Shown one piece after another: positions 27,855 to 44,271 of a stretch of 64,000 nt of DNA. The notes below the pieces were generated by a model, which had not been told where the DNA came from, did not search any database, and was given only the letters and a program-made list of their open reading frames with translations. Both the position numbers and the translations under genes were made by a program. Source of the stretch: Halarcobacter mediterraneus (GTDB lineage: Bacteria > Campylobacterota > Campylobacteria > Campylobacterales > Arcobacteraceae); the NCBI RefSeq assembly GCF_004116625.1, contig NZ_NXIE01000002.1, forward strand, positions 496,001-560,000, given 5' to 3'. Within the stretch, counting starts at the first letter, position 1, and each line of letters starts with the position of its first letter.

Positions 27855-28891
27855 AAAAATATTATATCAAAAAGATATAAAAGGGTAGATAGGATATGTT
27901 TTAGTTCAAGAAGAACAACATTAAAAGCCCCATTTGGTTGGGTAGGATTTCAATGCATTATATGTTTTAGTTCAAGTAAAAAAAGAGTTTGAAAGTGATT
28001 CGGCTTTTGAATTTCAATACATTATATGTTTTGATTCAAGTCTATAATTTAAATGGAGATATTAATATCACTCCTGAATTTCAATACATTATATGTTTTG
28101 ATTCAAGTTCAAGTGAATTTAATAGACTTGTTGAAGCTTATTGATTTCAATACATTATATGTTTTGATTCAAGCTAAAATTGAACTAACTGCATATCTTC
28201 TAAAGTATGATTTCAATACATTATATGTTTTGATTCAAGACGATGTAAGAGACGAGGTAAATACACTAAGAAAATTTCAATACATTATATGTTTTGATTC
28301 AAGGGGTTAATACTTGGTCTATAATGGTTAAAAAACCTAGATTTCAATACATTATATGTTTTGATTCAAGATTGACTTAAAGAAGTATCTTCTAAACTCT
28401 CGAACATTTCAATACATTATATGTTTTGATTCAAGACACAAAGTATGAATGAATGGGTACAAGATGTTTTATTTCAATACATTATATGTTTTGATTCAAG
28501 CTAGGCTATTTTCTATTGATTTACTTGTTTCGTCTATTTCAATACATTATATGTTTTGATTCAAGATCTGCAGCTACACTTACCTTAGAACCTTTTATAT
28601 AATTTCAATACATTATATGTTTTGATTCAAGACACAGTCTGCTTTAGAATATTCTAAGGAAGGTACATTTCAATACATTATATGTTTTGATTCAAGAGAA
28701 ATAACTTTAGCTAAGATTAAAGGCAGAGATTGATTTCAATACATTATATGTTTTGATTCAAGGTAATTTTAGCTTGTGCTAATTCTCCAACAGAATAATT
28801 TCAATACATTATATGTTTTGATTCAAGGGTATAACGAGATAGTAAAAGGTGTGTCTCATAGATTTCAATACATTATATGTTTTGATTCAAG

Positions 28892-28993
28892 TTAGCAGAC
28901 CATGTCACGCCATTTTCTCCAATTTTTATTTCAATACATTATATGTTTTGATTCAAGATAACCCAAAGCCCACGCTTGAGCAATAGCTGTCCA
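28892..28993 (-). repeat. Duplicated two-spacer block, copy 1 (older side of array)
   Basis: Spacer 28892-28927 (begins TTAGCAGACCATG), one repeat, and spacer 28958-28993 (begins ATAACCCAAAGC) occur again, identical and in the same order, at 31508-31609. The spacers outside the block differ. Confidence 0.95.
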
Positions 28994-31507
28994 ATTTCAA
29001 TACATTATATGTTTTGATTCAAGGGTTCAATTCTTTTAGAAAATTATGAAACTGAAGAATTTCAATACATTATATGTTTTGATTCAAGATTACAGATATT
29101 ACAAAAGATCTAAAATCAATTTAATTTCAATACATTATATGTTTTGATTCAAGAATTCAAGATAGTAAATATCATAAGGAGATAGAAAAATTTCAATACA
29201 TTATATGTTTTGATTCAAGTGTAGCCATGCATCTACACTCTAAGAAAAGAGAGAAGAATTTCAATACATTATATGTTTTGATTCAAGTTAGTTGCTACTT
29301 TTTTCTCTCTTTCATCTATTTCTATTTCAATACATTATATGTTTTGATTCAAGTAAATATATAAAACCAGTTTGGGTTATGCCAGAACGATTTCAATACA
29401 TTATATGTTTTGATTCAAGTAAGCTAAAACAAATGCCAAATCTAAGTCGAGAAAATTTCAATACATTATATGTTTTGATTCAAGATTATAAATTCGCAAC
29501 TTTGTCAAGAGTTTATATTAATTTCAATACATTATATGTTTTGATTCAAGATGGACCATGGAAAAGAACTCTACAGTTTTGTAACTATTTCAATACATTA
29601 TATGTTTTGATTCAAGACTCCTACAACAGTAACTATAGTTCCTAGATTATTATTTCAATACATTATATGTTTTGATTCAAGTTAGGATTTAAGGTAAAAG
29701 ATTACCAAAAATCTAAATTTCAATACATTATATGTTTTGATTCAAGGCATATATAGCAATAAACAATTTACTATTTAGAACATTTCAATACATTATATGT
29801 TTTGATTCAAGAACCTATCTTTTTGCCAAAACTGTTTGTGTAAAATTATTTCAATACATTATATGTTTTGATTCAAGTGTTTCTTTTAAGCTTTTATGGA
29901 TATTGGAATATTTTATTTCAATACATTATATGTTTTGATTCAAGTAACTGCATAAGAGCCTGCATTTTCTAGCTCCACTAATTTCAATACATTATATGTT
30001 TTGATTCAAGTAAATATGGAAAAAGTATCGAATAGTGATATAGGATTTCAATACATTATATGTTTTGATTCAAGTACTTATTTAAAAACAAGAGTTCTTC
30101 TGTTCTTTTTATTTCAATACATTATATGTTTTGATTCAAGAATATTTTTATCTGTTTTTTAAATATTTTTCAATTTATTTCAATACATTATATGTTTTGA
30201 TTCAAGCTCAACTTTTTGCAAATGTTTACGGGCATATCTTATTTCAATACATTATATGTTTTGATTCAAGAAGTTGCTCTTCTTGTGTAAGATTTAATTC
30301 TTTAGTATTTCAATACATTATATGTTTTGATTCAAGTAGAGTAATCACTAATAGCTTCATAATAATTTTCCCAATTTCAATACATTATATGTTTTGATTC
30401 AAGTTGTTTAGCTTCTTTTAGTTTAAAAATCTCTGCTTTTATTTCAATACATTATATGTTTTGATTCAAGAAGATCTATTGCGCTGGAAATGGCAAAAAG
30501 AAAAATTTCAATACATTATATGTTTTGATTCAAGAACCTAAGCCTACATATAACTCAGAAAAAGAGGAATTTCAATACATTATATGTTTTGATTCAAGCA
30601 GATATAAACTTTAATCAAATTGCAACAACAATATTTCAATACATTATATGTTTTGATTCAAGTGGAGAAGTAACTGGGCAGGTATTTAGCGAAGGCGTAT
30701 TTCAATACATTATATGTTTTGATTCAAGGAACAATGGAAACAATTTAACGAGAAGTTAAATAAATTTCAATACATTATATGTTTTGATTCAAGCTAATCT
30801 AATCTCTATTTAATATTTTAAAATAATTATTTCAATACATTATATGTTTTGATTCAAGTCAAAATAGAAGCTATTAAAATTAAATCTTTAAGATTTCAAT
30901 ACATTATATGTTTTGATTCAAGCATTATAAAAAGCTAATCTTGCAATTTTTTCCTTATTTCAATACATTATATGTTTTGATTCAAGGCTTTTTAATAATT
31001 GACTTAGAAGCACAATACAAATTTCAATACATTATATGTTTTGATTCAAGACCTGCTAACGATTTCTCTATGCTAGACTTAGAAAGATTTCAATACATTA
31101 TATGTTTTGATTCAAGTTTATGCTTACCTCTTGCTCTATTGTGTCTAACAGTATTTCAATACATTATATGTTTTGATTCAAGTAAGACAATTAATAAGTA
31201 AGACTATTGTTAAAGCTTATTTCAATACATTATATGTTTTGATTCAAGGATGTAAAAGTCAAGATATTGACTTTTTTGATGTATTTCAATACATTATATG
31301 TTTTGATTCAAGTAAAGATTGTTCAAATAAATCACAAAAGAAATATGAATTTCAATACATTATATGTTTTGATTCAAGTTTGGTGTTACTTTTTGTAATC
31401 AATCTAACAATTATTTCAATACATTATATGTTTTGATTCAAGAGTAGTATAAACAAAAAGAAGAACAAGTAAAACAAATTTCAATACATTATATGTTTTG
31501 ATTCAAG

Positions 31508-31609
31508 TTAGCAGACCATGTCACGCCATTTTCTCCAATTTTTATTTCAATACATTATATGTTTTGATTCAAGATAACCCAAAGCCCACGCTTGAGCAAT
31601 AGCTGTCCA
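31508..31609 (-). repeat. Duplicated two-spacer block, copy 2 (younger side of array)
   Basis: Identical to 28892-28993: two 36-nt spacers and the repeat between them. About 39 other spacers separate the copies, so the block probably moved by recombination between repeats. Confidence 0.95.
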
Positions 31610-33799
31610 ATTTCAATACATTATATGTTTTGATTCAAGTACAGTTAAGTACTTTAAAGAAAGTATTTCAACCCTATTTCAATACATTATATGTTTTGAT
31701 TCAAGATGCATGGGTTAGTTCTGGAAACAAAGTACTTCCATTTCAATACATTATATGTTTTGATTCAAGAATGCCTCTAGTACGATAATAGTATCAATTG
31801 TCAAATTTCAATACATTATATGTTTTGATTCAAGTCATATTGAACCACATTTTAAGACTTTTTCAATTAAATTTCAATACATTATATGTTTTGATTCAAG
31901 TTAGCCCAAGAATCAGTAGTGTCTATTAAATCCAATATTTCAATACATTATATGTTTTGATTCAAGCCATAAGATGAGTTTTAGTAAAACTTTACCTCAA
32001 GAATTTCAATACATTATATGTTTTGATTCAAGAACTTTAATATTAATACACTCATTAAAAAAGTATCTATTTCAATACATTATATGTTTTGATTCAAGTA
32101 AATCTCTTTCAGATAAAGAGTAAAATTGATACTTATTTCAATACATTATATGTTTTGATTCAAGTAGGTCTTATAGGCGAAGCAGGTTATCCAGAAGCCG
32201 ATTTCAATACATTATATGTTTTGATTCAAGAGTTTTGCAAGTTCTTTTACCTCTTTGCTCTCTCCATTTCAATACATTATATGTTTTGATTCAAGTAAGA
32301 AAGTAATAGATCTATTAAAGACATTTCACAAATTTCAATACATTATATGTTTTGATTCAAGTTTAATTTAGAATTAACATTAGTCATTGCATCTGCTATT
32401 TCAATACATTATATGTTTTGATTCAAGGTCTCAAATTTAAATACATGAGGTTTTCCATCTTTATTTCAATACATTATATGTTTTGATTCAAGAGAAAAGG
32501 TGTTCCTTATGTTGCAAGAATGCAACTATTTCAATACATTATATGTTTTGATTCAAGCAAATGAGAAAGTAATGCTAAAACAAAATAACCTAAATTTCAA
32601 TACATTATATGTTTTGATTCAAGAAATCTTTTCTTTTTTGAAGCTTTTTAAATGCTACATTTCAATACATTATATGTTTTGATTCAAGGGCGAAATTGAC
32701 AGATCTATCCTTAAACCTTCAATATTTCAATACATTATATGTTTTGATTCAAGTTATGACGGTATTACAGATGGTTTTGAGGTAAATCCATTTCAATACA
32801 TTATATGTTTTGATTCAAGAAACACTTATAAAGAAGCATGGCTTTTCTATTGGATTTCAATACATTATATGTTTTGATTCAAGTTTTGCATCTGTTAACT
32901 CGTCCATACTTTCTAACAGATTTCAATACATTATATGTTTTGATTCAAGTCTTTTTGTTCTTTTTAGTCCTATATATTTTTCTATTTCAATACATTATAT
33001 GTTTTGATTCAAGTCAAAGAAAACTATCTCTTTTTAGTTATCTATACAATTTCAATACATTATATGTTTTGATTCAAGTAAAGATAACCTTTGACCTTCA
33101 ATCTCTACAGTAATTTCAATACATTATATGTTTTGATTCAAGATAATCTAATTCAATTTTAAAAAAGGGATTTCAAATTTCAATACATTATATGTTTTGA
33201 TTCAAGCTGTATTCAGTCATCTTTTATCCTTTAATTTAATAATTTCAATACATTATATGTTTTGATTCAAGAGATAGAAACAATCTTTTCTATTTTGCGA
33301 CCAATAAATTTCAATACATTATATGTTTTGATTCAAGGTATCTCTAGCATTAATAAAATTTTGGTATTCATTTATTTCAATACATTATATGTTTTGATTC
33401 AAGCTAGGTAAATAGCATTAAGGTCATCTGCGTCACTCATTTCAATACATTATATGTTTTGATTCAAGTATAATTGTTGCATTATGGTTTTCTTACTCTA
33501 AAATATTTCAATACATTATATGTTTTGATTCAAGACAAAAAGAATCAGGCTGTAGAAATGTTATATCAAAATTTCAATACATTATATGTTTTGATTCAAG
33601 ACCTTGTCTGTGTCTAGTTGCACAAGCTGAAAGCGTATTTCAATACATTATATGTTTTGATTCAAGAAGAGGTATAAGAGTAGTAATAGATGATATTTTA
33701 TGATTTCAATACATTATATGTTTTGATTCAAGTTTCTTAAAAAGCATTATTTGAAGATTACTAGCACTTATTTCAATACATTATATGTTTTGATTCAAG

Positions 33800-33961: not shown

Positions 33962-35282
<1,321 letters not shown>

Positions 35283-35290
35283 TTTTATCC

Positions 35291-35782
35291 TTATATAAAA
35301 CAATACTCATAATAAGCACACTTTTTACACTTTGGTTCAAACTTTACTTGAGGTGGAATATCTTGATTAACTAGAGTTTCAATTTCATCCAAAACTTTTA
35401 AAAGCTTTTTTTCACTTACCTCATCAAGTTCCACATAATGTAATTTCTTATCTTGTTTATTTTTTTCTATGAACTCAATCTTTCCTTTTTTTTCAATACC
35501 TTTTTGCTTTAACTTATAAAGATAAAGTAAAACTTGCCACTTTACAGACTCTATATCACTATCTGACTTTTTTACTTCAACAAGATAATCACGGGTTAGT
35601 TTATCTATTTTGATATTGTCAATACTTATTTCAGATTTTTTTGATTTTTCTTCATTTATCTCATGTAAGATTTTACCAATACGTACATCTTCACTATTGT
35701 CTTCTAGGTTTATACGATTGGCGTGAAGATAACACTGCCTTTGACAGTGGAAATAGTAGTTTATGAGAGTGCCATTTACCAA
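35291..35782 (-). CDS. cas4: CRISPR-associated exonuclease Cas4
   Basis: Iron-sulfur nuclease that trims prespacers and helps select those with a PAM. In 163 residues the four cluster cysteines are visible: Cys13 and Cys17 (FHCQRQC) and the C-terminal CKKC...C group (152, 155, 161). RecB-type nuclease residues lie between, with GKILHEI and VKWQVLLYLYKLK. Its start overlaps the end of cas3 by 7 bp. Confidence 0.93.
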   Translation of the reverse strand: MVNGTLINYYFHCQRQCYLHANRINLEDNSEDVRIGKILHEINEEKSKKSEISIDNIKIDKLTRDYLVEVKKSDSDIESVKWQVLLYLYKLKQKGIEKKGKIEFIEKNKQDKKLHYVELDEVSEKKLLKVLDEIETLVNQDIPPQVKFEPKCKKCAYYEYCFI

Positions 35783-38223
35783 AATATATCCTTACTTTTA
35801 TCTTGATATGCTTTTCTATTAAACTTACCATTTTTTATAAAATCATCATAATTAGAAATAAAATGATAAGAACCACATATATAATCAAAATATGGTAATG
35901 ATTGCTTATCTGAATACTTTGTTATATTAAAGGTAAAAAACTGCATTAAAGAGTTTAATTCACTTCTTTTTACTTCTTTTTGAGCATAGTTTTTTATATC
36001 ATTTAATTTTTCAAACTCTTTCCAAATAAGTAATCCATCCAAATTCTCATCTTCATCTAAATATTTTGCTATTATTTTTTTATCTTTAAACTCATCAATT
36101 TTATATTTTGAAATATCAAGCTTAAAAGGGAAGTACAATCTAAAACTTTGTGAATTAATAAGTCTCATTTTTTCTTGTATCTCTTTATAGTTTAATTTTT
36201 GAACTTTTTCATTAAACTTTTCAAAATTTCCAAGTATTCCATCTTTTATTTTTGAATCATTAATTTTTATTCTTCTAAATATATTTTTATAAAAATTCTC
36301 GAAATTTTTATCTAATAAAACTTGTCTAAATTCATCTTTTCGCAAGTTATCTTCTATACGATTGTCTTCTTTATAAATCTTATCTTCTTCATCTTTATTA
36401 AAAAAGTACACTTTTGGTTTATATCTATTTTCAACTTTTAAGCAAGACCTATTTATCCGACCTAAAAATTGCTCTTCACTATCTATAGTTGAAATATCTT
36501 TAAAACCCAAATCCATATCTATATCAACACCAGCTTCTATAACTTGTGTTGCAACTAATATGATTTTCAATTCTTTTTTATCTTTTATTTTTTGTATTAT
36601 ATGTTCCCTAGTAGCTTTATTATCATCACCACTCAATTCAAAAATCTCAAAATCTTTAAATCTTATATCTTCTTCAATTTCCTCAAAAAATTCTCTTGCA
36701 CTATCTTTTTTTATAAACTCAAATACTATCTTTGAATAGTTTTCTTTTTCTATATTTAATTTCTCTATCAAAATATCATACTCAATCTCTTTGTATAGCT
36801 CCAATAATGAAAAGTCAATTTCTACTCTATTCTTAAAATATTTACTTTGAAAATAGTCATTTTTGTTTTTGATAAGTTCTACAAAAATATCTTTATTTTC
36901 TTCACTATCTATTAAATTATCAAGTTTTGGTAGGGTTGCAGACATAATAATAATCTTCATATTTAATGCTTTTGCATAAATAGAAAAAAACTTAATCATA
37001 TATGACCAAAGTTTATTATCATAACTTTGTATTTCATCAAGTATTATCACACTATTTGCAAGTTGCCAAAGTGGAAAGTTATCTTCTTTTGTTGTTCCAA
37101 AAAGTATATTAAAAAATGCAATATGTGTCATAAGAATCAACTCATTATGAAAAAAAAGTCTACTCATATATGACTTTTGATATTTACTCTCTTCATCTTC
37201 TTGTTCTTCATCTGTTTTTTCTTTTATGGGAGTTATAGAATTGATAACAGATATATCCAACTCAGCTGCAAATATATCATCAAGTTGTTTTTTTGTTTGT
37301 TCAACTAAAGTATTGAAAGGGAAGACATAAAATATTTTATTAATATCTTCTTCTTTTATCAAATTCATTGCAAGATTTATAGAAATCAGCGTTTTACCAC
37401 TACCTGTTGGTGCTTCAAGATAAAATATATTTTTGTCTAAATTTTTAAGAAGATTTTCTTCTGCTTCCAAAAACATTTTTGAACGAAGTTTATTTATCCC
37501 TTTTATATTTTTACCACTTCTAATATTTCTGATAATTTTATACCCTTCAAATTTATTTATGATTTTTTGCTTATCTTTTATAGTACCAAAATCAGTGGTT
37601 GGTAAATCAGCCATATAATGTGTTGTTGCATAATAATCACTTGAAACTAAAAGAGAAAAAAGAAGTTTATTTAATATATAAAATTCAAAAGGATTATGTA
37701 TATACTTCTCACTCTTTTTTTTCACAAGTTCATAAGAACCATCTTCTTCTATATTATAATCTTCAATACTATCAAGCTTACCATGATGTTTTGTTATTGA
37801 ATAAGAAAATGTATTTAAAATATAATTAATTTTCTCAAATATTTCATCATCTTCTATTTTATCAACTTCTTCTGTAAATAATTTAATAAACTCTTTTGAT
37901 GAATATACTGAATGTTCAGAAGATAATGTAGTTTTTTCAAATAATTTATTATCCATTTTATTTGCTTGAAAAGAATTATTTGTTTTACCTAAGTCATGCA
38001 AAAAAATAGCATTATAAAAAAGTTTCTTTATTAAAATAAAATTATCTTTATCTAAATCAATAATCATTTTATCAATTAGATTTGATAAATTTTTTTCTTT
38101 TATAATTTTTTCAAGATAAAACTTTGTTAGATTACAATGATCAATTAATTTCTCTTTTGGCTTATTTCCACAAGTATGAGCAAAAAAGTTTTTATATTTT
38201 TGCTCATCTAAATTCACATACAT
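35776..38223 (-). CDS. cas3: CRISPR-associated helicase/nuclease Cas3 (HD + DExD/H fusion)
   Basis: Degrades target DNA after Cascade binding. The 815-residue protein carries an N-terminal HD nuclease domain (AHTCGNKPKE..., His-Asp at 76-77 in FLHDLGK, later KHHGKLD). A superfamily 2 helicase follows with Walker A EAPTGSGKT (about 270-278), Walker B DEIQ (about 396-399), SATLP, and the motif VI-like QFLGRINRS. All active-site motifs look intact, so interference should be functional. It lies 12 bp after cas5. Confidence 0.96.
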   Translation of the reverse strand: MYVNLDEQKYKNFFAHTCGNKPKEKLIDHCNLTKFYLEKIIKEKNLSNLIDKMIIDLDKDNFILIKKLFYNAIFLHDLGKTNNSFQANKMDNKLFEKTTLSSEHSVYSSKEFIKLFTEEVDKIEDDEIFEKINYILNTFSYSITKHHGKLDSIEDYNIEEDGSYELVKKKSEKYIHNPFEFYILNKLLFSLLVSSDYYATTHYMADLPTTDFGTIKDKQKIINKFEGYKIIRNIRSGKNIKGINKLRSKMFLEAEENLLKNLDKNIFYLEAPTGSGKTLISINLAMNLIKEEDINKIFYVFPFNTLVEQTKKQLDDIFAAELDISVINSITPIKEKTDEEQEDEESKYQKSYMSRLFFHNELILMTHIAFFNILFGTTKEDNFPLWQLANSVIILDEIQSYDNKLWSYMIKFFSIYAKALNMKIIIMSATLPKLDNLIDSEENKDIFVELIKNKNDYFQSKYFKNRVEIDFSLLELYKEIEYDILIEKLNIEKENYSKIVFEFIKKDSAREFFEEIEEDIRFKDFEIFELSGDDNKATREHIIQKIKDKKELKIILVATQVIEAGVDIDMDLGFKDISTIDSEEQFLGRINRSCLKVENRYKPKVYFFNKDEEDKIYKEDNRIEDNLRKDEFRQVLLDKNFENFYKNIFRRIKINDSKIKDGILGNFEKFNEKVQKLNYKEIQEKMRLINSQSFRLYFPFKLDISKYKIDEFKDKKIIAKYLDEDENLDGLLIWKEFEKLNDIKNYAQKEVKRSELNSLMQFFTFNITKYSDKQSLPYFDYICGSYHFISNYDDFIKNGKFNRKAYQDKSKDIFW

Positions 38224-38235
38224 AGAATAACCTTT

Positions 38236-39012
38236 CTAAAAGAAAAAATAGTTCTTATCTTCAAAAGAATATATATTTTTATACTCACTTTTTAAACTTA
38301 ACTTTTGATTTGTAAAAATCAAACTTTTATATTCATAAAAATGGAAATCCCTTTGTAAAGATACAGGAGAAAGCTCTTTAAAAATAAAAGGCAATACTCT
38401 TCTTCCTGCACTATCTTTGATTTCAAAATAATCATCCACAAATAATGAATCAATTCTTTCAAAATCTTCTGAACTTTCTAAATTTATCTCTTCTATAAAA
38501 TCTATATTGGCAGGATGGTCATTTTTACCTAAATATGGAATAAATACAGCCTTTTCATTTAGTAAATATTCTTTTATTTTTTCATATATTTTAGTTTCAT
38601 TATCTATAATAAGTATTTGCCATTTTGGATTTTCAAGCCATTGCTCTCTTACGATTAAATTTCCACCCAATTCTTTACTTGCATATCCTACAGAGTTATT
38701 AAAAGTTTGAATTTTTTTTGTAAAATATCCAGTATTTGGTTCTTTACCATTTTTTGGAATTATACTTATCTTTAAATCTTTTAATTTTTCATAATATTCA
38801 GGAAACCCGTCATTTAAAGGTTTTTTATTCTTCTTATTTTCGATATTTTCATCATATAGTTTTATATATCCATCAAGTCCAATTATAGCTCCAAGTATTC
38901 CTAGAAGTGCTGGTTTATGGATATTGTTATATGTGAAATATGCATATGAATTTACATCAGGCTTTTTAAAAATGGCACTTTTACCACTTATTTCAAAGCT
39001 TAAAGCATTCAT
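38236..39012 (-). CDS. cas5: CRISPR-associated protein Cas5 (type I-B)
   Basis: Cascade subunit that caps the 5' handle of the crRNA. The 258-residue protein starts MNALSFEISGKSAIFKKPDVNSY and continues HKPALLGILGAIIGLDGY, the typical Cas5 RAMP N-terminus. It starts 1 bp after the cas7 stop, so translation is coupled. Confidence 0.9.
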   Translation of the reverse strand: MNALSFEISGKSAIFKKPDVNSYAYFTYNNIHKPALLGILGAIIGLDGYIKLYDENIENKKNKKPLNDGFPEYYEKLKDLKISIIPKNGKEPNTGYFTKKIQTFNNSVGYASKELGGNLIVREQWLENPKWQILIIDNETKIYEKIKEYLLNEKAVFIPYLGKNDHPANIDFIEEINLESSEDFERIDSLFVDDYFEIKDSAGRRVLPFIFKELSPVSLQRDFHFYEYKSLIFTNQKLSLKSEYKNIYSFEDKNYFFF

Positions 39013-39013
39013 C

Positions 39014-41605
<2,592 letters not shown>

Positions 41606-41616
<11 letters not shown>

Positions 41617-42292
41617 TATCACTCCAAACTATTAAATCTATTTTTTGTGCTATTTTTAATTCACCATTTTCATAAATATCATTAAAATCATCTAATTCTT
41701 TGACTAAAATATAAACATCTTTGTTTAACCAATAAATTACTTCTAATATTTCGTTATAAGCTTCTTGTAGCTTTTCATAATTAATTATAGTTTCATAATG
41801 AAAAATTTTATTTCTTAATTTTCTAATTTCATCAATTTTAATTCTAAGTTGTTTATTTGTTAGAGAATTTTTTGGCATACTAGGAAAAATATCTTTTCTA
41901 TATTTATTCCAAATTTTTTGCTCATATTCACCTTTAAACAATGCAGTCCAAAAACCAAGGTTTAATTCCGATATTATCCTACCTGAGGTTTTTTCTTTTT
42001 TAATATTTCGTTTAGCTTCAACAATTTTCTCATAAGATTTTTTATTTAAGAAGTTTTCTATATCAAACCAAAACTCATTATCCAATTCTTTTGACAATAT
42101 ATTATGTATATTATTTCTTAAGGTAATTTCATATTTTTGCAAGGAAAAGTATAAAGATTTAGATAGTTCTATATTGTATAAATATTTTATAATAAGTGTT
42201 TTTTTATCATTTGTATGACAAATATTTGAATAGTGTTTTAATCTATCTTTAGATATTGAAGATTCTAAACTTTTAAGTAATAAATCATTCAC
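41606..42292 (-). CDS. Abi_2 family (AbiD/AbiF-like) HEPN ribonuclease toxin inside the cas operon
   Basis: A 228-residue Abi_2 (PF07751-type) protein. The second half shows the HEPN active-site pattern Arg160-Asn161...His165 (RKLRNKIFHYE) after TSGRIISELNLGFWTALF, the most recognisable family block. Residues 59-63 (RNNIH) give an earlier helix of the same kind. Abi_2/AbiF proteins act in phage defence, and many HEPN proteins are RNases, so growth arrest by RNA cleavage is inferred. The start is GTG with GGGGGAAG 6 bases upstream. It is preceded by a structured RNA and a good promoter, and its end overlaps cas8b by 11 bp. Such a gene is not a standard part of type I-B operons. Confidence 0.85.
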
Positions 42293-42303
42293 TTACTTCC
42301 CCC

Positions 42304-42332
42304 TTGATTTTTTATCTCTTTTCTTGTATAAT
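42304..42332 (+). promoter_or_regulatory. Candidate sigma-70 promoter reading rightward (antisense to the Abi_2 leader)
   Basis: TTGATT (42304-42309), 17 bp, TATAAT (42327-42332). A transcript would start near 42339 and run through the hairpin at 42345-42388 in the opposite direction to the Abi_2 gene. Confidence 0.45.
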
Positions 42333-42402
42333 ATCCTTGTAGTGCCCAGGTGTTCCTCTCCTGTAAATTTTACAGTGAAGAGCCTGGGAGATGCTTGATA
42401 TT
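42330..42402 (-). ncRNA. Structured RNA upstream of the Abi_2 gene (abiF-motif-like candidate)
   Basis: Read leftward the segment folds as nested helices: CCCAGG (42388-42383) with CCTGGG (42350-42345), and an inner hairpin CTGTAAA/TTTACAG (42375-42361). Between them lie conserved-looking internal loops containing GAGAGGAACA. AATATC/GATATT (42402-42397 and 42335-42330) can close the base. It is strikingly GC-rich for this genome. It starts right after a strong promoter and ends about 38 bp before the Abi_2 start. A structured 'abiF RNA' is known next to abiF-type genes; assigning this one to it is inference. It could also be a 5' UTR regulator. Confidence 0.6.
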
Positions 42403-42405
42403 TGA

Positions 42406-42434
42406 ATTTTATCTTAAAATTATTCTTTTGTCAA
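42406..42434 (-). promoter_or_regulatory. Sigma-70 promoter for the structured RNA and Abi_2-cas operon
   Basis: On the minus strand: TTGACA (42434-42429), 17 bp, TAAAAT (42411-42406), matching consensus at 11 of 12 positions. Transcription would start near 42399 at the base of the structured RNA and continue into Abi_2, cas8b and the rest. This separates cas6 from the other cas genes. Confidence 0.7.
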
Positions 42435-42443
42435 GTTTCAATA

Positions 42444-42477
42444 ATATCATAGAATAATGTATATTATTCTATGATAT
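42444..42477. repeat. Perfect 15-bp inverted repeat between cas6 and the Abi_2 promoter
   Basis: ATATCATAGAATAAT, loop GTAT, then its exact complement. It ends 10 bp before the -35 of the leftward promoter. It could end the cas6 transcript, though no U-run follows, or be an operator for a dimeric repressor. Confidence 0.6.
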
Positions 42478-42521
42478 TTAAGCCTTAATATTTTACTTAG
42501 ACTTCTTTTAGTATCATTTCT

Positions 42522-42603
42522 TAGTAAAATTACTCTATTAAACCTTGAACCAAAACATAAAATGTATTGAAATATAATTTCATAAAATAAAGTAATTTTA
42601 CTA
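42522..42603. repeat. 13-bp inverted repeat flanking the orphan CRISPR repeat
   Basis: TAGTAAAATTACT (42522-42534) and its exact complement AGTAATTTTACTA (42591-42603) enclose the orphan repeat. The right arm overlaps the cas6 stop codon. Each arm is itself nearly palindromic, so they may be two operator sites or an RNA stem. Confidence 0.6.
42544..42573 (+). repeat. Orphan CRISPR repeat downstream of cas6, opposite in orientation to the array
   Basis: The plus strand matches the crRNA-sense repeat at 28 of 30 positions, beginning CTTGAACCAAAACATAAAATG and ending TATTGAAAT when read in two parts. The changes are at position 7 and in the loop of the short ACAT/ATGT hairpin. The hairpin stem and the 8-nt handle ATTGAAAT are kept. 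A rightward transcript would carry a usable handle followed by ATAATTTC. The leftward cas6 mRNA would instead carry an anti-repeat complementary to all array repeats. Confidence 0.85.
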
Positions 42604-43323
42604 CTTCCATAAACAAAACCCTCCACCATAACTTTGTTTCTCACCAATTCCACAAGCCAATGCAACAAAAGCCAATTTCTGACTTATTTCATCTTCATTT
42701 GGTACTATTTTAAATTTATTTCCAAAGAGTCTTACCGTTCTATCATTTTTAGTGAAAAATATTGAATGTGGTACTTTGTTTTTCATCTCAAAAAGTTGTA
42801 TAAAATTTTGGATAGGTTTTAAATCTTCACCATAAAAAGCTTTGTATTTTCTAAGTAAATTATCTTGTAATTGATTTTGTAAAATAAAAATATCATCATT
42901 TGTAGTCCAAAACTTTTGTTTTTCACCTTTTTGCCTTTTTAATGAAACTATCACAGGTGTTGCAGTATAAAGTTCTGTTATAAAAAACTGCTTTATATTT
43001 TTTTTACTTGTTTCTATAACTTGAAGATTTGGATTATTGATATTTTCTCTTAAAAGTTTAGACAATTTATCTATAAACTTTTCATCTAAACTTCTTAAAG
43101 AGAAGCTATAAGATTGACCTTTTTTATATATCTTATCTTTTTCAAGAGGATAAAAACCACCGAAACAATAAGATTTAAAAACTCTTTTTTGGGAATGTAG
43201 ATTTTTTAATTCTACATCTTTTGACATAGAATAGTTTATATATTTTGACAAGATATCAAAAATATTCTTATATTCTATATCCTTCTTTATGATTACCATA
43301 CATATTAATTCAAAATATTTCAT
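42601..43323 (-). CDS. cas6: CRISPR RNA endoribonuclease Cas6
   Basis: Cuts the pre-crRNA within each repeat. The 240-residue RAMP-fold protein starts MKYFELICMVIIKKDIEYKNIF. It ends with the Cas6 glycine-rich loop GIGEKQSYGGGFC (225-237), the clearest family mark. 'FKIVPNEDEISQKLAFVALACGIGEK' precedes it. It is the first cas gene and is separated from the Abi_2-cas8b operon by 308 bp holding several signals. Its stop codon lies inside an inverted repeat. Confidence 0.93.
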   Translation of the reverse strand: MKYFELICMVIIKKDIEYKNIFDILSKYINYSMSKDVELKNLHSQKRVFKSYCFGGFYPLEKDKIYKKGQSYSFSLRSLDEKFIDKLSKLLRENINNPNLQVIETSKKNIKQFFITELYTATPVIVSLKRQKGEKQKFWTTNDDIFILQNQLQDNLLRKYKAFYGEDLKPIQNFIQLFEMKNKVPHSIFFTKNDRTVRLFGNKFKIVPNEDEISQKLAFVALACGIGEKQSYGGGFCLWK

Positions 43324-43378
43324 ATTATTACCTTAGTATTCAAATAATAATATTATTATATATTACAAACCTAAGACT

Positions 43379-43600
43379 TTGCTAAATATTTATGCTAAAA
43401 AATTATTTATTACTATAACTGAGAAGATTATTACTAAAAGTATTAAGATTATTAAAGTTTTATCTATAGAGGCTTTCTTTTTATTTGACATTATTACTCC
43501 AATTTTTTTATTTATTATTCTTGAGGTATTCTACACAAATTATATTAAAGCTTTTAAAACTTTTTTTAGATATAATCAAAAAAATTTACATGAAGACTAA
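43379..43600 (+). CDS. Possible small membrane protein upstream of gatC
   Basis: A 73-residue frame starting at TTG with no clear Shine-Dalgarno. Residues about 30-52 (AFFLFDIITPIFLFIILEVFY) are strongly hydrophobic, the rest basic. I do not recognise it. It may be a real small gene or the 3' remnant of a longer gene cut when the CRISPR-Cas island arrived. If not coding, this 285-bp gap holds only the cas6 and gatC promoters. Confidence 0.35.
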   Translation: MLNIYAKKLFITITEKIITKSIKIIKVLSIEAFFLFDIITPIFLFIILEVFYTNYIKAFKTFFRYNQKNLHED

Positions 43601-43608
43601 GGAAAACT

Positions 43609-43899
43609 ATGACTGTAGATGATAAATTAATTGATAAATTAGCAAAGCTTTCAAGTTTAGAAATTGAAGAATCAAAAAAAGAAGTTCTTAAATCAGAGCT
43701 TGCTGATATTATTAACTTTGTTGAAAATCTAAATGAAATCGATGTTTCAAATATTGAAGCTACTTTTAATACAGTTGAAGGTGGTACTCCTTTAAGAGAA
43801 GATGTTTCAACACAAGATTTAGAGCTTTCAAAACATATTTTAGCTAATGCTCCAAAAAGTGAAGATAACTACTTCATAGTACCAAAAATTATTGAATAA
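43609..43899 (+). CDS. gatC: Aspartyl/glutamyl-tRNA amidotransferase subunit C
   Basis: Small subunit of GatCAB, which converts Glu-tRNA(Gln) and Asp-tRNA(Asn) to the amidated forms. The 96 residues show the family pattern 'LIDKLAKLSSLEIEESKKEVLKSELADIINFVENLNEIDVSNIEAT' and PLREDV. AAGGAAA precedes the ATG. The gatA and gatB genes are not in the window, as usual for unlinked gat genes. Confidence 0.95.
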   Translation: MTVDDKLIDKLAKLSSLEIEESKKEVLKSELADIINFVENLNEIDVSNIEATFNTVEGGTPLREDVSTQDLELSKHILANAPKSEDNYFIVPKIIE

Positions 43900-43926
43900 A
43901 ATTTAAACTTTTAAGGAAAATAAACG

Positions 43927-44271
43927 ATGATTAAAGTTTATGGTATTAAAACTTGTAATTCTGTAAGATCTGCTTTAAAATTTTTTAAAGACAACAATAT
44001 TGAAGTAGATTTTTTTGATTTCAAAAAAGACACTCCAGAAGCAGAGTCTATAGACTTATGGGTAGAAAAAGCTGGTATTGATATTGCTTTTAATTCAAGG
44101 GGTACAAAATATAGAACTTTGAAATTAAAAGAACTAAATCTTGATGAAGCAGGAAAAATTGAGTGGTTAAAAAAAGAACCAATGCTTTTAAAAAGACCTG
44201 TTATAGAATATGATAAAAATAAAGTTCTTATAGGTTTTAATGAAAATTTATATAAAGAGACTTTTCTTTAG
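43927..44271 (+). CDS. ArsC/Spx-family thioredoxin-fold protein (YffB-like)
   Basis: A 114-residue cytoplasmic protein with a single N-terminal cysteine, Cys10 in YGIKTCNSVRSALKFF, and WLKKEPMLLKRPVIEYD near the C-terminus. This is the ArsC/YffB pattern. Glutathione- or thiol-dependent reduction is suggested, but arsenate reductase activity cannot be claimed. It follows gatC by 27 bp and ends in a terminator. Confidence 0.85.
   Translation: MIKVYGIKTCNSVRSALKFFKDNNIEVDFFDFKKDTPEAESIDLWVEKAGIDIAFNSRGTKYRTLKLKELNLDEAGKIEWLKKEPMLLKRPVIEYDKNKVLIGFNENLYKETFL

What the first reader, a model, noticed from the sequence alone, without database searches (positions are those of the whole stretch)
42293..42600. 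CreTA- or CreR-like guard: a crRNA-like guide that could repress the Abi_2 toxin promoter
Known: in Haloarcula type I-B a repeat-containing RNA (CreA) encoded between cas6 and cas8 guides Cascade to repress a toxin, so loss of Cascade frees the toxin; CreR-type guides repress cas promoters. Seen: here the same gap has a repeat with intact handle, followed by ATAATTTC, and the Abi_2 promoter (42417-42423, minus strand) contains ATAATTT. The 7-base match at the seed position could easily be chance in AT-rich DNA, so this is a hypothesis. What is new here would be a protein HEPN toxin in place of an RNA toxin.
Basis: partly seen in the sequence, partly recalled or inferred. Interest (0 to 1): 0.72.

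Follow-up and report, generated by a model that had tools for sequence, protein, structure and literature searches.

The report
CRISPR-guided lock on a toxin gene
Between two CRISPR genes of this bacterium lies a stray CRISPR repeat whose guide matches a site next to the promoter of a likely RNA-cutting toxin and the CRISPR genes behind it, which suggests that the CRISPR machinery holds its own operon and a built-in toxin in check.

Summary
The orphan repeat is real (42544-42573, + strand, 28/30, intact handle). A far better target lies just upstream of the same promoter's -35: PAM TCA (42438-42440), protospacer 42441-42461. It matches the guide at 18 of 18 counted positions, with mismatches only at 6, 12 and 18, the positions type I effectors flip out (0 of 3000 shuffles; unique in the genome). 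The layout recurs in a Sulfurospirillaceae locus and, with a 28-aa hydrophobic ORF in the toxin slot, in two more genomes; PAM and -35 lie 0-3 nt apart in all four. The toxin has an AbiF-type HEPN fold (8vz6, Z 12.9) and a covarying hairpin RNA upstream, like AbiF antitoxin RNAs. The promoter also heads cas8-cas2. Best reading: a CreA/CreR-like guide lets Cascade repress an operon that begins with an AbiF-like RNA-toxin pair. The pairing is strongly supported; toxicity on Cascade loss is inferred. Protein toxins under CreA are known (CrePA); this AbiF/HEPN variant I did not find in print.

The parts
42544..42573 (+). orphan CRISPR repeat of the creA-like gene, 8-nt handle ATTGAAAT at its 3' end
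   Evidence: 28/30 to the array repeat, handle 8/8; opposite in direction to the cas operon
42574..42594 (+). guide (spacer-like part); positions 1-21 used in the tests
42522..42534 (+). 5' arm of a 13-bp stem that encloses repeat and guide
   Evidence: z -3.7 on the guide strand; equivalent stems of other sequence in L013 and G222/G007
42591..42603 (+). 3' arm of that stem; starts at guide position 18 and runs into the cas6 stop codon
42438..42440 (+). PAM-like TCA next to the target
   Evidence: TCA or CCA in all five guide-target pairs, four of them found in scans that did not ask for a PAM
42441..42461 (+). target (protospacer) of the guide, just upstream of the -35
   Evidence: 18/18 matches outside positions 6/12/18; mismatches exactly there; only perfect genome match besides the guide
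42429..42434 (-). -35 TTGACA of the toxin-cas operon promoter, 3 nt from the PAM
42406..42411 (-). -10 TAAAAT
   Evidence: 11/12, spacer 17
42339..42393 (-). hairpin RNA in the 5' leader, AbiF-antitoxin-like
   Evidence: fold z -3.1 (42293-42440); 6 pairs with two-sided changes in 6 sequences; model hit 64.8 bits
41606..42292 (-). AbiF-fold HEPN protein (228 aa), putative RNase toxin, RNKIFH motif
42601..43323 (-). cas6
39907..41622 (-). cas8b, start overlaps the Abi stop by up to 17 nt
33962..39907 (-). cas7, cas5, cas3, cas4, cas1, cas2
28010..33799 (-). main CRISPR array, about 89 repeats CTTGAATCAAAACATATAATGTATTGAAAT

Best explanation
The orphan repeat makes a crRNA-like RNA (CreA/CreR-like). 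Cas6 cuts the repeat to leave the handle; Cascade (Cas5-6-7-8) carries this guide to a site that lies next to the -35 of the promoter at 42406-42434 and blocks it (strongly supported by sequence; not measured). The promoter heads a hairpin RNA, an AbiF-type HEPN ribonuclease and then cas8-cas7-cas5-cas3-cas4-cas1-cas2 (shown as gene order, operon inferred). Cascade therefore holds down its own operon and the toxin in it. If Cascade is lost, blocked by an anti-CRISPR or drawn off by other crRNAs, the operon is released: Cascade is refilled and AbiF is made (inferred). The hairpin RNA is a second lock, a type III-like antitoxin that binds AbiF (inferred from the AbiF literature), so the net effect depends on the balance of RNA and protein. 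The pairing stops after about 16-21 nt, which would allow binding without Cas3 cutting (inferred).
For: Guide-target match with mismatches only at 6/12/18 in the window; the best of 3000 shuffles has 1 mismatch, the real gap 0; the only perfect genome site besides the guide itself. L013: 16/16 match, PAM TCA (0 of 3000 shuffles). G222 and G007: mismatches only at 6/12 over the first 16 (and 18 in G222), PAM CCA. Scan of 36 cas6 loci with handle and YCA PAM: 5 hits (window, L013, G222, G007, G427); decoy handles gave 0 or 1. PAM to -35 distance 3, 1, 0, 0 nt. Enclosing stem in three lineages without shared sequence. The rule that positions 6 and 12 are free and 1-5, 7-11 needed, next to a PAM, was measured for H. 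hubeiense CreA (PMC8501985, passages). AbiF fold: 8vz6 Z 12.9 over 202 residues, next row 5.9. Hairpin covariation. Swap of the slot content: 28-aa hydrophobic ORF in G222/G007.
Against: No RNA or phenotype data. In G288, whose cas8, cas7, cas5 and cas3 are 94-96% identical, RNA and toxin sit between cas6 and cas8 with no orphan repeat found, so toxin and guide are separable. G014 keeps the hairpin RNA before cas8 with no toxin there. The promoter heads cas genes too, so the toxin could be a passenger of autoregulation. The RNA antitoxin is on the same transcript, so release need not kill. The PAM of this system was not determined independently: array spacers gave no usable phage match. The target is also one arm of an inverted repeat (42443-42478), which could be the operator of a protein repressor.
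Confidence: 0.75

Rival explanations
1. CreR only: the guide serves feedback control of the cas8-cas2 operon; the AbiF pair is an independent defence module that happens to sit in the operon and is not released to harm by loss of Cascade, since its RNA antitoxin comes with it.
For: Target promoter heads the cas operon and no terminator was found in 42280-42640; G427 has a guide against the cas6 leader with no toxin seen there; toxin occurs without guide in G288.
Against: In window and L013 the toxin is the first gene behind the targeted promoter, and in G222/G007 a short hydrophobic ORF takes the same place, as expected of a toxin slot.
Confidence: 0.35
2. One reading: the guide acts at the -10 through ATAATTT (42417-42423).
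For: 7-base seed identity.
Against: 8 of 21 mismatches, no YCA PAM, 7-mer in 32% of shuffles.
Confidence: 0.01
3. The orphan repeat is an inert array remnant and the guide-target likeness is chance or a duplication.
For: Only 5 of 36 cas6 loci have such a pair.
Against: 0 of 3000 shuffles in each of two loci, mismatch positions 6/12/18, same geometry in unrelated sequences, handle in L013 follows its own array (ATTTAAA-).
Confidence: 0.04
4. The inverted repeat around the target is bound by a protein repressor; the guide derives from it without function.
For: Inverted repeat 42443-42478 (the reversed copy matched).
Against: L013 shows no such palindrome by eye, yet the same guide-target pairing.
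Confidence: 0.04

Closest known systems
CreTA (type VIII toxin-antitoxin, haloarchaeal I-B and others; PMC8501985, PMC9458426, passages)
   Same: orphan repeat in or next to the cas operon (cas6-cas8 gap in H. hispanica), guide pairing at 1-5 and 7-11 beside a PAM at a toxin promoter, positions 6 and 12 free
   Different: toxin slot holds a protein (or a 28-aa ORF), not a tRNA-sequestering RNA; guide transcribed opposite to the toxin; longer pairing; promoter also heads cas genes
CrePA (Shu et al. 2025, known to me here only through the review PMC12737573, passages)
   Same: protein toxin held by CreA-guided Cascade
   Different: toxin there is KilA-N and acts on FtsZ; here an AbiF-fold HEPN with an adjacent RNA
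CreR (review PMC12737573, passages)
   Same: crRNA-like guide against the promoter of its own cas operon
   Different: CreR is described as generally not coupled with a toxin gene
AbiF / AbiFCd-RCd22 type III system (PMC12373285, passages; PDB 8vz6)
   Same: HEPN fold, R-x4-H motif, hairpin RNA directly upstream, probably co-transcribed
   Different: hairpin does not match Rfam RF03085 here; no terminator found between RNA and gene; lies in a CRISPR operon under a guide

Membership tests
CreTA | orphan repeat with handle plus guide near cas genes | tested here: met
   28/30, handle 8/8
CreTA | guide pairs at 1-5 and 7-11 with the toxin promoter, beside a PAM | tested here: met
   PAM inferred from shared YCA, not determined independently
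CreTA | toxin is a small RNA | tested here: not met
   first gene behind the promoter encodes 228 aa with an AbiF fold; no test for an extra RNA toxin
CreTA | repression needs the Cascade genes and not cas1-4; loss is toxic | not testable with these tools
   needs genetics
CrePA | protein toxin under CreA-guided repression | tested here: inconclusive
   arrangement fits; repression and toxicity not measured
CrePA | KilA-N toxin | tested here: not met
   no KilA-N hit in Pfam, PADLOC or NCBIfam
CreR | guide targets the promoter of its own cas operon | tested here: met
   promoter is followed by Abi and cas8-cas2 on the same strand
CreR | not coupled with a toxin gene | tested here: not met
   AbiF-fold gene lies between promoter and cas8
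AbiF / type III TA | AbiF fold with HEPN R-x4-H | tested here: met
   Z 12.9, 202 residues; R160, H165 invariant in 10 of 10; Foldseek E 0.041 only
AbiF / type III TA | Pfam Abi_2 match | tested here: not met
   window protein none at E up to 10; 4 of 10 aligned family members match
AbiF / type III TA | structured RNA directly upstream | tested here: met
AbiF / type III TA | RNA matches Rfam abiF RF03085 | tested here: not met
   no match at this place
AbiF / type III TA | RNA neutralises the toxin | not testable with these tools
   needs expression tests

The most novel reading that the evidence does not exclude
A doubly locked suicide slot in type I-B loci of this bacterial order: Cascade with a dedicated guide keeps an AbiF-type HEPN ribonuclease silent at the DNA level while a hairpin RNA keeps it silent at the protein level, and the slot is swappable (28-aa hydrophobic peptide in sister loci). 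Loss or inhibition of Cascade frees a relative of the Cas13 ancestor to cut RNA.
Probability: 0.42. Interest if true: 0.82.

Novelty: new variant of a known kind. Interest (0 to 1): 0.72.

Why it matters
It joins two lines: guides that turn Cascade into a repressor, and AbiF, the RNA-held HEPN toxin from which Cas13 is thought to descend (PMC12737573, PMC12373285, passages). If true, a type I CRISPR operon carries a type III-like toxin pair under its own effector, which offers a concrete route by which CRISPR loci capture such toxins and a natural sensor of anti-CRISPRs. The 6/12/18 mismatch rule also gives a clean computational test for finding more such guides.

Tried and rejected
Rfam on 41000-44000: only a sub-threshold CRISPR repeat match; abiF RF03085 not at this place. 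PAM from array spacers against phage records: 10 weak records, none usable. Close relatives in viral contigs with the single protein: none; with the alignment: 8 distant ones. PDB by sequence: three chance-level rows. Whole-operon scan for more guide-target pairs: 54 raw hits in 36 loci, of which 49 are, by eye, array repeats or spacers matched to each other; the 5 left are those. Decoy PAMs: A[TC]C and AC[TC] gave 70 hits each with zero mismatches; I did not list them and put them down to the array in L069, which gave 81 hits; GA[AT] gave 2 and T[AG]G 0. Scans without a PAM also gave a few pairs without YCA (window, L063, L111, L114, L115), which I dropped as coding duplicates, array parts or chance. 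A creA promoter on the + strand is not settled: one candidate TTGTCA-16-TAGAAT (42428-42455) overlaps the target, but 2.3 promoter-like sites are expected by chance in the stretch scanned.

Not looked at: wide flanks of the Abi relatives in G341, G267, G347, G144, G387 and G363 (only about 1.5 kb each, not searched for cas genes), so the statement that only G288 has it in a I-B operon covers the flanks, not all 14 genomes.

Full report
What is there. The window holds a type I-B locus on the minus strand: cas6, a gap, an Abi-like ORF, cas8b, cas7, cas5, cas3, cas4, cas1, cas2 and an array of about 89 repeats. 'Arcobacter-like' would be my recollection, not a result.

The target. Scanning the window with the guide while ignoring every sixth base finds one site that stands out: 42441-42461, TCA before it, 18 of 18 counted positions identical, and mismatches exactly at 6, 12 and 18. 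In 3000 shuffles of the gap the best had one mismatch and none had zero. In the 2.83-Mb genome the pattern has two perfect matches, the guide and this site. For H. hubeiense CreA, positions 1-5 and 7-11 were needed and 6 and 12 were free (PMC8501985, passages), so the mismatch pattern is that of a guide read by Cascade.

Other loci. The one scan of genome contigs found one relative of the toxin, L013. It has the same order of cas6, antisense repeat, promoter, hairpin, toxin, cas8, cas7, cas5, cas3. Its guide matches 16 of 16 at a site with TCA, 1 nt from TTGACA (0 of 3000 shuffles). Its handle ATTTAAAT follows its own array's ATTTAAAC rather than ATTGAAAT, although the rest of its repeat is closer to the window's type. 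Cas6 was found in 22 of 104 genomes of the family. Two of these, G222 and G007, have an antisense repeat after cas6 whose guide matches a site next to TTGACA with CCA before it, mismatches at 6 and 12 and, in G222, 18. There the first ORF behind the promoter is 28 aa and hydrophobic (MKLFISVFKVLKDILIALYLIIKIYREL in G222, one residue different in G007), followed by a different set of I-B genes (G222). G427 has a degenerate pair of repeats upstream of cas6 with a guide that matches the cas6 leader, mismatch at 6, TCA before it. A strict scan of 36 cas6 loci with the handle and a YCA PAM gives exactly these five (window, L013, G222, G007, G427); decoy handles gave 0 or 1. PAM-to-(-35) distances in window, L013, G222 and G007 are 3, 1, 0 and 0 nt. 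In window, L013 and G222/G007, repeat and guide lie inside a stem of 11 to 17 pairs whose sequence differs between the three (z -3.7, -4.2 and about -1.5 on the guide strand, so weak on its own in G222/G007).

The toxin. The ORF at 41606-42292 has no Pfam Abi_2 hit, matches PADLOC PD-T4-5 (8.9e-13) and AbiD weakly. Of 10 aligned members of its family, itself included, 10 match PD-T4-5, 5 AbiD, 4 Abi_2 and 1 Cas13a weakly. AlphaFold2 on a 7-row alignment gave pLDDT 88. The best PDB match is PbAbiF bound to its RNA, Foldseek E 0.041 with probability 1.00, Z 12.9 over 202 residues against 5.9 for the next row, Csm6'. R160 and H165 of the RNKIFH motif are invariant in 10 of 10.

The hairpin RNA. 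The toxin leader holds a hairpin at 42339-42393. I saw, by eye in the folds, an inverted repeat within 125 nt upstream in all 19 Abi genes examined; covariation was counted only for six that align: 90.8% of cells paired, 6 pairs with changes on both sides, 1 of 500 shuffles as high. A model of it finds those same six among 59 sources (they match by construction) and three genomes of 104 in the family: G000, G288 and G014. In G014 it precedes cas8 with no toxin there. Rfam's abiF model does not reach it. In C. difficile an RNA in this position neutralises AbiF (PMC12373285, passages).

How it works. Shown: parts, geometry, match. Strongly supported: Cascade with this guide binds beside the -35. 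Inferred: repression, release on Cascade loss, toxicity, neutralisation by the hairpin. Because the promoter serves cas8-cas2 too, the circuit is at the least feedback control. Whether it is also a guard depends on whether the toxin outruns its RNA when Cascade fails.

Against. G288 has RNA and toxin in the same gap without a guide. Toxin relatives outside CRISPR loci exist: 14 of 397 genomes of the phylum have a relative, and of the ten Abi loci whose wider flanks were searched, only G288's lies in a I-B operon (window and L013 apart). Only two independent loci (window, L013) have guide plus AbiF. The PAM was not determined independently.

Known or new. CreTA, CreR and CrePA cover guide-based repression of RNA toxins, cas operons and a KilA-N protein toxin (PMC8501985, PMC9458426, PMC12737573, passages). 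The original CrePA paper and the first CreTA paper were not read. Searches for AbiF/HEPN with CreTA or CreA listed no report of this combination; they cover open-licence PMC papers only, and I saw only the listings. Hence: new variant of a known kind.

Noticed in passing
L108:12915-13195 and L111:914-1175 (G222, G007): Same-position guide with a 28-aa hydrophobic ORF as the first gene behind the targeted promoter, ahead of a different I-B effector set; a candidate small membrane toxin.
   Followed up: partly
L119:4373-4520 (G427): Two degenerate repeats around a guide that matches the cas6 leader with PAM TCA: a CreR-like candidate.
   Followed up: partly
L112:12268-12321 (G014): The hairpin RNA stands between cas6 and a Cas8b gene with no toxin: remnant, or an RNA with a role of its own.
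   Followed up: partly
window 42443-42478: The target is one arm of a near-perfect inverted repeat; in G222/G007 a second, reversed partial copy of the target overlaps the start of the 28-aa ORF. Unexplained.
   Followed up: no
L057, L059, L060, L066-L069, L114: Inserts of about 1 to 6 kb between cas8 and cas7, cas7 and cas5, or cas5 and cas3 in related I-B loci; content not examined.
   Followed up: no
window 27947-27976: Degenerate terminal repeat of the main array (27/30).
   Followed up: no
L071:17097-18017: Array in which several spacers are reverse complements of each other.
   Followed up: no
L010, L019, L022 and others, upstream of Abi genes: More distant Abi relatives have leader hairpins of another shape (CCCAAGC..CTTACTGGG, CTACACCTC..GTAGGCTTAC), possibly further AbiF antitoxin classes not matched by Rfam.
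   Followed up: partly
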